26,527 nt of DNA. It comes from Candidatus Dadabacteria bacterium (GTDB taxonomy: Bacteria; Desulfobacterota_D; UBA1144; Nemesobacterales; JADFKM01). The notes below the pieces were generated by a model. The model had not been told where the DNA came from, did no database searches, and was given only the letters and a program-made list of their open reading frames with translations. A program made the position numbers and the translations under genes. Shown in pieces: positions 7,584 through 19,178 of the stretch (position 1 is its first letter; every line of letters begins with the position of its first letter). Location: assembly GCA_022564935.1 (NCBI GenBank), contig JADFKM010000026.1:1-26527 (forward strand), read 5' to 3'.

Positions 7584-7838
7584 TCAGCCGGTGAAATCAG
7601 CGGCCAAGAGTATACTACAATCTGTAATGTCCCCGCCGACCCCTGCCTTATCGAGATACACCAAAATCGGGGCTTCGGGGCTACCCGGCTCGTAGACGAC
7701 CATCGCCCCGGCCACGCCGCCGATACAAAACCCCTCCGAGCGCTTCGGGCCGTAGAACGACGTGCCGAAGTGTGACACAAGAGCTAACAGTCCAAGCACC
7801 AAGAGCGCAGCTACGACGTCAAGAGCTATGACCGCCAA
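7584..7838 (-). CDS. Small single-pass membrane protein upstream of the antiporter
   Basis: 84 aa starting with TTG at 7838, which has a near-perfect SD (GGAGGTGA, six bases before the start); this decides the start. One transmembrane helix near the N-terminus (ALDVVAALLVLGLLALVSHF) is followed by a ~60-residue domain with two Cys (FCIGG and ITDCS) and Gly/Pro-rich segments. No family recognised. It ends 17 bp before the ATG of the CPA1 antiporter and probably shares its transcript, so it may be an accessory or regulatory partner, but that is inferred from position only. Its 5' side abuts the gene scar at 7915-8672. Confidence 0.6.
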   Translation of the reverse strand: MAVIALDVVAALLVLGLLALVSHFGTSFYGPKRSEGFCIGGVAGAMVVYEPGSPEAPILVYLDKAGVGGDITDCSILLAADFTG

Positions 7839-7914: not shown

Positions 7915-8250
7915 TATACTCGTTTTGAAGGCGTAATCCTCGAAGACCAGGTGTGGCCCAAGCGCTGCGGTTACTTCGAGTGAAAGCGCGTAATCCCGGC
8001 CGAGGAGCACATAGAAAATATTCACGCCGCCAGAGAGGCGGGTTACGAAAGCGCGCTCGTCATAATAGCGCGCACCGATGCGCTGACCCCTCTGGGGATG
8101 GAAGAGGCGCTCCGCAGGGGGAGGGCGTACGTCGAGGCGGGCGCGGACGTGCTGTTCGTAGAGGCTCCGCGCTCCGTAGATGAGCTTTCGCAGATCGCCG
8201 AGGCGTTTCCCCATACGCACCTGTTCGCCAACATGGTAGAGGAGCCGTAA
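7915..8250 (+). pseudogene. Internal fragment of an isocitrate lyase/PEP mutase-family gene
   Basis: The plus strand reads, in one frame, FEGVILEDQVWPKRCGYFE, a TGA at 7981-7983, then KRVIPAEEHIENIHAAREAG, later IIARTDALTPLGMEEALRRG, then AYVEAGADVLFVEAPRSVDE and LFANMVE, closing with TAA at 8248-8250. This is the middle of the isocitrate lyase/phosphoenolpyruvate mutase superfamily, closest in style to methylisocitrate lyase or oxaloacetate decarboxylase: the catalytic-loop K-R-C-G and the A-R-T-D-A strand are both visible. The TGA occupies the conserved Gly codon of G-H-x-E-G-K-R. The N-terminal ~110 and C-terminal ~70 residues are absent. No SD or start. It runs antiparallel into the broken DUF945 gene, so both were damaged by one rearrangement (inference). 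Confidence 0.78.
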
Positions 8251-8672
8251 CCTCCAATCTTCACCGTTGTGTCTAAGCTAACGGGCGGCACATCGACAAG
8301 AAGCCCTATCATCTCGCCCATCGCTCCGAACATCTCCCCGGCCTCCAAGCGCCACTGCGACTTAATCACGGCTTGAACTGGGCTGAGATCGAACTCACCC
8401 TTCAGTATGTTTGAGATGGGGAAGGGGCCGTGCTCGATCCTGTCGGTTTGAACAAATTTGTAATATGATTTGCTGGGTGGCCCCACCATGGCTTCCAGAG
8501 TCGCCGTGGAGCTGAATAGACCCTTGTTATACTCCTTATTTACCGTATAACCCGAAGATTCGTTGAATTCTACAAAGCCCTCATAGAGCTTCTCGGTCTT
8601 AAGACCCAACCAGTAGTACGCTCCAAGTACCAAAAGGACAATTACGAGCAGTATCGATAGGACGAGCCTCAC
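8043..8672 (-). pseudogene. 5' half of a DUF945-family gene fused to foreign sequence
   Basis: GTG at 8672 with GGAG nine bases upstream starts a protein whose first ~140 residues parallel the intact DUF945 protein encoded upstream at 8758-10170: N-terminal transmembrane helix ending YYWLGLKTEK, then Y-N-K-G-L-F-S-S-T-A, D-R-I-E-H-G-P-F, ILKGEFDLSPVQA and V-S-L-D-T-T-V. Homology stops near 8245-8252. Downstream the frame stays open to 8043 only by reading the antisense strand of the isocitrate lyase-family fragment (Ala/Ser/Arg-rich, no domain). About 300 residues of a DUF945 protein are thus missing. Tandem position next to the intact copy suggests an old duplication. A longer TTG start at 8690 is possible but less likely. 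Confidence 0.72.
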
Positions 8673-8757
8673 CGTAGTACACTCCGACAAATATCAGCTC
8701 AATGGAGCATTCTAACTCACATGCTCACTGGATGCGGCAGCAGGCTACAGGGACGCT

Positions 8758-10170
8758 TTAAAACCCGACCATCGGAATAGGCTTGTCCTCACCGTTAACG
8801 GTAAGCTGCCCTCCTTTGTAGGCGACTTCTATAGTATAGTGGTCGTTTTTTACCCTAAACATCCCCTGCTCTACAAACTGCTGCATACGCTCGGCCACGG
8901 CCTCTTTGGCCAGTATCTGGAGCTCGACTTCCATCGGCGGGGTCCTGCCTTCGGCCTCGTAATTTTCTAAAATTTTGTCCCTTTCCATGTCTTCCAGGAT
9001 TTTCTCAAGGTCAAGGGCGGGCATGGAGAATTTCAGCTCCGCATTAATGGCTCCAATAAGGAGGAACAGGTTTTTAAGGGTTTCGGGGCTGCTGTCGCTC
9101 AGATAGATCTTCGCCCACCCGCTCATTTCCCCTTCGGAGGTCTTGAATGAAAGCTCGGTCAGCTCGATCTCCGGGGAGTTCTTCAGCAGATCGGGCAGCA
9201 TTTTCATTATGGTTGAGTTTGTCATCTTGGAGCGCTCATAATCCGAGATCTTCTTTTTGTCCAGCTTATCCATCTCTTTCTTGATCTTTATCCAGGTCTT
9301 AGAATCTATGTTCCTTATAGCCAGGACGAACGAGCCGGGTCCATAGACCGTTTCGTCCAGACTGATTTCATTTAGCTTCACATCCAGCTTGAACTCGATA
9401 TTGCCCTTTTTTTCAACGACATGAGATTTGAAGATCAGATCATCGAGATTAAAGTCCTTCCCGTCATCTGTAAGTATATGAAATTTGCTCATCGAGAACG
9501 AGGCACTGCCAAGCGGAGGGCCTAGGCCGTCCTTGCCCTTGTCCACATCGTAATCGAAAGCAAGGTTGGTGAAATTCAAATTCGCATCTTCGCCGCTTAT
9601 GTCAAGAAGCGGCATCTTGAGGGCCCCCTTCCCCTTGGTAAGCTGCGCGTTGGAGGAAAACTTCCCCTTTATTCCCTTAAAATCGACGGTTATTTCGTTC
9701 TCCTTAAACGTTTTTTTGAACGGGGTCAAGGACAGAGTAGAGACGAAATCTCCCGACATCGCCACCACCGAGTTCAATTTAACGGGGGGCAGCTGTTTAA
9801 GGATTTTGTTGAAGCCCTCATCGGAAGTGGCAGTCAGGGTGAGAGTGTTCTCGATCAGAGCCTGATTGAGATTGAAGCTGAATTTGCCCTTTATCATATT
9901 GGCAAGTCCTATAGGGCCGTGAACGATCTCGTCTTTAGAAATCACGCGAAATCCGGCTTTGCCCGATCTGGACTTAACTGAATACTCCACTTCCGCAGCG
10001 GAGCTTAGAAAGCCGCGGTCATAAGATTTCTGTTTTACCTCCAAACGACCGATATTGTTTGCGCTTTCAATCATCACCGTATACTTCTTTTCCACCCCCA
10101 TACCAAACCAGTATGTAGCCCCGAGCAATCCCAAAACCAAAACAACAATAATGCCTATTATAACTCTCAT
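8758..10170 (-). CDS. DUF945 (YdgA-like) family envelope protein
   Basis: 470 aa. N-terminal signal anchor (MRVIIGIIVVLVLGLLGATY) followed by the diagnostic DUF945 beginning: YWFGMGVEKKY, Y-D-R-G-F-L-S-S-A-A, D-E-I-V-H-G-P-I and MIKGKFSFN. The body is a long beta-rich region with repeated strand-like segments and several Lys/Glu patches, and the C-terminus ends with a compact VAYKGGQLTVNGE motif. Members of this family (for example E. coli YdgA) are inner-membrane-anchored periplasmic proteins of poorly defined role. The ATG at 10170 has a strong SD (AAGGAG, seven bases spacing). Codon use is more A+T-rich than in the antiporter. A truncated paralogue lies directly downstream on the same strand. 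Confidence 0.9.
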   Translation of the reverse strand: MRVIIGIIVVLVLGLLGATYWFGMGVEKKYTVMIESANNIGRLEVKQKSYDRGFLSSAAEVEYSVKSRSGKAGFRVISKDEIVHGPIGLANMIKGKFSFNLNQALIENTLTLTATSDEGFNKILKQLPPVKLNSVVAMSGDFVSTLSLTPFKKTFKENEITVDFKGIKGKFSSNAQLTKGKGALKMPLLDISGEDANLNFTNLAFDYDVDKGKDGLGPPLGSASFSMSKFHILTDDGKDFNLDDLIFKSHVVEKKGNIEFKLDVKLNEISLDETVYGPGSFVLAIRNIDSKTWIKIKKEMDKLDKKKISDYERSKMTNSTIMKMLPDLLKNSPEIELTELSFKTSEGEMSGWAKIYLSDSSPETLKNLFLLIGAINAELKFSMPALDLEKILEDMERDKILENYEAEGRTPPMEVELQILAKEAVAERMQQFVEQGMFRVKNDHYTIEVAYKGGQLTVNGEDKPIPMVGF

Positions 10171-14145: not shown

Positions 14146-14961
14146 TCACAGCCGCTGCACACTCCGGGGGTCTAAATAGTCCCTCAATCCTTCCCCCAGA
14201 ATGTTGAATGAAAAAGCCGTTACGAATATGGCCAGGCTGGGGAAGAACAGCAGGTGTGGAGACGTGCGTATCCCCTGCCACCCGGAGCTTGCGAGAGTCC
14301 CCCAGCTGGCCTCAGGCGGCGTTATCCCTAGTCCCAGGAAGCTCAAAGTGGACTCGGCCAGTATCGCGTAGGGCACAGAAAAGGTAATGGTCACGAGCAG
14401 CGGGCTGAGGATGTTGGGTAGTATGTGGCGGGCGAATATGCGGGTGTGAGAGGCCCCGAGGCTTCTGGCCGCATCCACATAGGTAACGCCCTTTACCTGC
14501 AGCACGCTCCCCCTCACTACCCTCGCCACTCTCATCCACGCGGTTAGCCCGAGGGCGATCACAATGCCCACGGTCCCCCTTCCGATGACCAGAGACACCA
14601 GCACTATGAGGAGCAGGTCGGGAAGGGAGTAAAACACGTCCACCACCCTCATCAAACCCTCGTCCACCCTGCCTCCGAAATATCCCGAAAACGCACCGTA
14701 CACTGTGCCGATCACAAGCGCGAGACATGCCGTGCCGAGGGCAACTGCCACCGACACCCTGGAGCCGTAAATCACGCGGCTGAGCAGGTCTCTTCCCAGC
14801 TGGTCAGTTCCCATCGGGTGCTTAAGGGAAGGCGGTCTGAGTGCGTTCCCGAAATCGGTCTCGTCGAAGCGGTGGGGCGCAATCCAGGGCGCCAGTACCG
14901 CCATTGCGATTATCGCGGCTATTACCAGAGCCGAGGCCGTAATCTGAGCTTTCAGTAGCAT
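14146..14961 (-). CDS. ABC transporter permease, DppC/OppC type
   Basis: 271 aa. An N-terminal transmembrane helix and periplasmic loop (HPMGTDQLGRDLLSRVIYGS, the DppC/OppC signature) precede the five-helix binding-protein-dependent permease domain. The EAA motif that contacts the ATPase is present (DAARSLGASHTRIFARHILPN), and the C-terminus holds SFNILGEGLRDYLDPR, typical of this subfamily. Family members move di-/oligopeptides or nickel as a heterodimer with DppB/OppB. Here no DppB-type permease, ATPase or binding protein is adjacent: upstream is a non-coding region and downstream a convergent gene. ATG at 14961 has GGGGTGAG upstream. Confidence 0.93.
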   Translation of the reverse strand: MLLKAQITASALVIAAIIAMAVLAPWIAPHRFDETDFGNALRPPSLKHPMGTDQLGRDLLSRVIYGSRVSVAVALGTACLALVIGTVYGAFSGYFGGRVDEGLMRVVDVFYSLPDLLLIVLVSLVIGRGTVGIVIALGLTAWMRVARVVRGSVLQVKGVTYVDAARSLGASHTRIFARHILPNILSPLLVTITFSVPYAILAESTLSFLGLGITPPEASWGTLASSGWQGIRTSPHLLFFPSLAIFVTAFSFNILGEGLRDYLDPRSVQRL

Positions 14962-18785: not shown

Positions 18786-18891
18786 CGGTATGTATCCCGG
18801 ATTTGAATCGACAAAGTAGGATAGCCGAAAATCGCCTTATATCCAACTCTGCGCTTCAGGCACGAAAACAGCAGGCTGCAAGGGCAGGGCA

Positions 18892-19178
18892 TCACGACGG
18901 GAAGCACTTTCCGAACTTCATCAGCAGCATGGGCGAGCCCCACAGCCTCAGATTCCTCGTGAGCGTGGTGTTGTCCATGCCCAGAACCTCCGCAAGACGG
19001 GTAAGGGGGACCGGGGCCCGACAAGCGCCGTTGCGACGAGCACCGGGAACTGAGTGGCCTTGATGCCCGTGGGGCGGAACGCCTCGTCGAAGACCTGTGT
19101 AACGGCACGCGTGGTCTTCCTCAGGATGGTGCACATGCAGCCCCGGCACTGCATCAGAAGCCCTTTATCTATACTCAT
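18892..19178 (-). pseudogene. marR-family regulator, frameshifted and truncated
   Basis: ATG at 19178 has a textbook SD (AAGGAGGTGAT at about 19185-19195). The first frame gives a MarR N-terminal helix (CMCTILRKTTRAVTQVFDEA) then F-R-P-T-G-I-K-A-T-Q-F-P-V-L, but the wing-helix recognition part (VPLTRLAEVLGMDNTTLTRN) is in another frame. The switch lies near 19015 in a G/C run; one extra G would rejoin both halves. After the recognition helix the frame ends at 18892 without the wing and dimerisation helices, so even a corrected protein would be ~95 aa instead of ~145. The intact SD suggests recent decay. A sequencing indel could explain the first break but not the missing C-terminus. Confidence 0.7.

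What the first reader, a model, noticed from the sequence alone, without database searches (positions are those of the whole stretch)
7915..8672. Antiparallel fusion of two gene fragments: half a DUF945 gene and the middle of an isocitrate lyase-family gene
The minus-strand DUF945 homology ends at about 8245-8252, exactly where the plus-strand isocitrate lyase/PEP mutase fragment ends. The latter lacks both termini and has a TGA in place of a conserved Gly codon. The long minus-strand frame to 8043 is therefore misleading: its C-terminus is antisense to a former enzyme gene.
Basis: partly seen in the sequence, partly recalled or inferred. Interest (0 to 1): 0.6.

Follow-up and report, generated by a model that had tools for sequence, protein, structure and literature searches.

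The report
Decayed gene pair joined by deletion
Two neighbouring genes that normally face each other tail to tail lost about 1.25 kb across their shared tails, leaving two broken pieces fused head-on; this is ordinary genome decay, though a gene finder would be fooled by the open frame across the join.

Summary
Plus-strand 7927-8241 encodes residues ~106-211 of an isocitrate lyase/PEP mutase-family enzyme (methylisocitrate lyase-like), with TGA (7981-7983) for an invariant Gly and the catalytic-loop His changed to Tyr. Minus-strand 8672-8241 encodes the first ~third (not half) of a DUF945/YdgA-like protein. The join lies at 8235-8244. In the same GTDB order (members deposited as Ca. Dadabacteria/Thermodesulfobacteriota), the enzyme and DUF945 genes are convergent neighbours in 15 of 15 other genomes holding both; in 13 the gap is -17 to +35 nt. 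The two breakpoint positions lie 1.23-1.29 kb apart in relatives and touch here, so one ~1.25-kb deletion across the tail-to-tail boundary made the 'fusion'. The enzyme also lost its N-terminus, and no other copy is in the (88.6% complete) genome. An intact DUF945 paralogue (10170-8758) lies next door. The minus-strand ORF's tail to 8043 is misleading antisense: codon-position GC flips at the join. One relative (G013) has an independent in-frame stop in its enzyme gene, and two keep DUF945 without a detected enzyme gene. Ordinary pseudogene formation; low interest.

The parts
7927..8241 (+). Fragment of an isocitrate lyase/PEP mutase-family enzyme gene (methylisocitrate lyase-like), ~residues 106-211 of the 290-aa intact relative; N-terminus and C-terminus missing
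   Evidence: Pfam PF13714 E 7e-20; 66-70% aa identity to relatives; only copy above cut-off in own genome
7981..7983 (+). In-frame TGA replacing the invariant Gly of the ...KKCGHFEGK... segment
7972..7974 (+). Tyr codon replacing the invariant His of the KKCGH catalytic-loop motif
   Evidence: the motif's role is known from the isocitrate/methylisocitrate lyase family, not tested here
8235..8244 (.). Deletion junction between the enzyme fragment and the DUF945 fragment; ~1.25 kb missing relative to order members
8241..8672 (-). N-terminal third of a DUF945 (YdgA-like) gene, with GTG start and GGAG ribosome-binding-like site retained
   Evidence: PF06097 profile 7-152/460; alignment; start region
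8043..8240 (-). Spurious C-terminal part of the minus-strand ORF: antisense of the enzyme fragment, open to 8043
   Evidence: no DUF945 match beyond profile position 152; codon-position GC flips; the same antisense stretch matches the antisense of intact enzyme genes in relatives
8758..10170 (-). Intact DUF945 paralogue, upstream in the same direction; 33% identical to the truncated copy
   Evidence: PF06097 E 8e-85, profile 6-458/460; identity

Best explanation
This is a decaying gene locus with no active mechanism. The ancestor had an isocitrate lyase/PEP mutase-family gene (+) meeting a DUF945 gene (-) tail to tail with almost no gap. In this lineage a second DUF945 gene lies just upstream. 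One deletion of about 1.25 kb removed the 3' part of the enzyme gene and the 3' two-thirds of the adjacent DUF945 gene, joining the two truncated genes head-on (shown by comparison with relatives). The enzyme gene also lost its first ~105 codons and gained a TGA (shown). The order of these lesions is not known. The intact DUF945 paralogue presumably carries on that protein's role, and the enzyme function was dispensable (inferred).
For: Convergent enzyme/DUF945 neighbours in all 15 other order genomes holding both, gap -17 to +35 nt in 13; homologous breakpoint positions 1231-1289 nt apart in those measured, touching here. In named records the pair recurs in 10 loci deposited as Ca. Dadabacteria, Thermodesulfobacteriota/-ales or Deltaproteobacteria (several are the same genomes) and in none of the other 54 enzyme loci. 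No second enzyme copy above cut-off in own genome. Further lesions in the enzyme: TGA, His to Tyr, missing N-terminus. Enzyme loss recurs: G013 has TAG at the conserved Glu of NMVEGGKTP; G008 and G016 keep DUF945 with no enzyme gene detected.
Against: No genome from the same family was available, so the immediate ancestor is not seen and the nearest enzyme is only ~70% identical. What lies left of 7927 and caused the N-terminal loss is unexplained. The truncated DUF945 copy keeps its start, frame and 11 of 12 invariant residues, so it could still be translated.
Confidence: 0.93

Rival explanations
1. Assembly chimera: the contig was misjoined inside two intact genes.
For: The genome is a fragmented draft (104 contigs, 88.6% complete), and no reads could be checked.
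Against: A random misjoin would not pick exactly the two conserved convergent neighbours in native order and orientation; there is no repeat at the join; the TGA, the His to Tyr change and the missing N-terminus are separate lesions; neither missing half is found elsewhere in the assembly.
Confidence: 0.04
2. The 209-215 aa minus-strand ORF is an expressed new chimeric membrane protein: DUF945 N-terminal anchor plus a tail born from the antisense of the enzyme gene.
For: Start codon and GGAG retained, frame open to 8043, conserved residues of the N-terminal third largely kept.
Against: The tail has an antisense codon signature; the open antisense frame is also seen over intact enzyme genes; two-thirds of the domain is missing; no second genome is available to show conservation.
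Confidence: 0.03

Closest known systems
Pseudogene pairs made by deletion between adjacent convergent genes
   Same: Two truncated genes fused head-on, each intact in relatives at the same adjacency
   Different: Nothing fundamental; here a neighbouring intact paralogue of one partner is present
Isocitrate lyase/PEP mutase superfamily (methylisocitrate lyase PrpB, petal death protein 1zlp)
   Same: The intact relative matches TIGR02317 (275 bits) and petal death protein over its full length, with a KKCGH motif
   Different: The intact relative is below the prpB cut-off (354 bits), so its substrate is uncertain; the window copy is a fragment with a stop and an altered motif
DUF945 (PF06097, YdgA family)
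   Same: The first ~150 profile positions, including the N-terminal anchor, are present
   Different: The C-terminal two-thirds is missing in the truncated copy

Membership tests
Functional isocitrate lyase/PEP mutase enzyme | Full-length barrel domain (~285-295 aa) | tested here: not met
   Only profile positions 101-193/240 matched; nothing of the N-terminal part
Functional isocitrate lyase/PEP mutase enzyme | Open frame and KKCGH catalytic-loop motif (lyase branch) | tested here: not met
   TGA at 7981; motif reads KRCGY
DUF945 family member (8043-8690, -) | Full PF06097 domain (460 positions) | tested here: not met
   Positions 7-152 only; the neighbour at 8758-10170 covers 6-458
Pseudogene pair by deletion between convergent genes | Relatives hold both genes intact, adjacent and convergent, with the missing stretch between the breakpoints | tested here: met
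Pseudogene pair by deletion between convergent genes | Junction supported by sequencing reads | not testable with these tools
   No reads available

The most novel reading that the evidence does not exclude
The truncated DUF945 gene is still translated into a membrane-anchored protein whose 66-residue tail was created from the antisense strand of a dead enzyme gene, i.e. a new protein end born by deletion and overprinting.
Probability: 0.04. Interest if true: 0.45.

Novelty: new member of a known kind. Interest (0 to 1): 0.15.

Why it matters
It is a clean example of how a single deletion across a tail-to-tail gene boundary creates an open reading frame that annotation pipelines would call as one protein. 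It also shows that an isocitrate lyase/PEP mutase-family gene has been broken or lost more than once in this little-cultured order while DUF945 is kept. Otherwise ordinary.

Tried and rejected
Repeats at the junction: none found. A second enzyme copy in the own genome: none above cut-off; two weak hits (C101, C75) are partial and below it. Residual enzyme N-terminus left of 7927: no match above noise. The 84-aa ORF at 7584-7838 as a known family: no Pfam match, and no homologue beside seven related antiporter genes. DUF945 as a single-protein scan of genome contigs: found nothing. Phylogeny of the two window DUF945 copies: both on long branches, joined with weak support 68/64; lineage-specific duplication is neither shown nor rejected. 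Literature: no paper on this locus or pair found.

Full report
What is there. The window is a whole 26.5-kb contig of a 1.99-Mb draft genome (104 contigs, 88.6% complete). On the plus strand, 7927-8241 encodes ~105 residues of an isocitrate lyase/PEP mutase-family enzyme (PF13714, E 7e-20, profile positions 101-193 of 240). An in-frame TGA at 7981-7983 replaces a Gly that is invariant in the relatives compared, and the KKCGH motif reads KRCGY. On the minus strand, ORF 8690-8043 matches DUF945 (PF06097) only over profile positions 7-152 of 460 (E 4.5e-20). An intact DUF945 gene (6-458 of 460, E 8e-85) lies next to it at 10170-8758.

Where the join is. In the residue alignments the enzyme matches through NMVE (ending 8241), and the DUF945 copy matches through GYGSS (8252-8238). 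The join is therefore within 8235-8244. The base composition by codon position gives the same answer without homology: 0.53/0.36/0.64 in the DUF945 part, 0.42/0.71/0.77 in the ORF's tail, 0.69/0.41/0.76 for the enzyme read on the plus strand. The long open antisense frame is not special to this locus: the same antisense stretch is found over intact enzyme genes of relatives.

What made it. None of the genomes held is from the same family, but 42 others from the same order are. Eighteen of the 43 have DUF945 above cut-off and eighteen have an enzyme match (both counts include this genome). Wherever both occur outside this genome (15 genomes), they are neighbours on opposite strands, tail to tail. 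In 13 of these the gap is between -17 and +35 nt; G037 (about 1.1 kb) and G013 (about 0.56 kb) have larger gaps. In relatives, the residues homologous to the two sides of the join lie 1231-1289 nt apart. Here they touch. A single deletion of about 1.25 kb, taking the last ~80 codons of the enzyme and the last ~325 codons of DUF945, explains the junction completely. No repeat was found at the junction.

How far decay has gone. The enzyme fragment differs from its relatives at 6 of 49 positions invariant among them, including the stop and the motif His. An intact homologue of similar overall divergence (G017) differs at 6 of 55, with the motif and frame kept. Most of the fragment's divergence thus looks like it accumulated while the gene worked, so inactivation is probably not ancient (inference). 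The truncated DUF945 copy keeps 11 of 12 invariant residues, its GTG start and a GGAG. The enzyme's N-terminal ~105 codons have left no trace to the left of 7927, which needs a second event whose nature is unknown. No intact enzyme copy is present elsewhere in the assembly, with the reservation that about 11% of the genome is missing.

Context. The same enzyme gene is failing elsewhere: G013 has a TAG in place of the conserved Glu of NMVEGGKTP, and G008 and G016 keep DUF945 with no enzyme gene detected. The intact relative's enzyme is closest to petal death protein and methylisocitrate lyase but scores under the prpB cut-off, so its substrate is open. The two DUF945 copies of the window are 33% identical and both sit on long branches; whether they arose by duplication in this lineage is unresolved.

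Verdict. It is a well-explained pseudogene pair. The open points are the absent read evidence, the cause of the N-terminal loss, and whether the open minus-strand frame is ever translated.

Noticed in passing
L015:8346-8349 and order relatives: The enzyme and DUF945 genes are conserved tail-to-tail neighbours across the order, their ends overlapping by 4 nt in G001, G007, G021 and G027 and by 11-17 nt in G012, G024 and G029; why this pairing is conserved is unknown.
   Followed up: partly
L049 (G013:C5:5853-6713): A second, independent in-frame stop (TAG for the conserved Glu in NMVEGGKTP) in the enzyme gene of another genome of the order, with a ~0.56-kb gap to DUF945.
   Followed up: partly
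window 18890-19170 (-): Two overlapping minus-strand frames look by eye like a frame-shifted remnant of a MarR-type regulator; neither frame reaches a Pfam match.
   Followed up: partly
window 7584-7838 (-): 84-aa ORF with a hydrophobic N-terminus between the antiporter gene and the broken enzyme gene; no Pfam match and no homologue found beside related antiporter genes.
   Followed up: partly
window 14146-14961 (-): A lone OppC-type ABC permease gene with no partner permease or ATPase gene apparent next to it.
   Followed up: no
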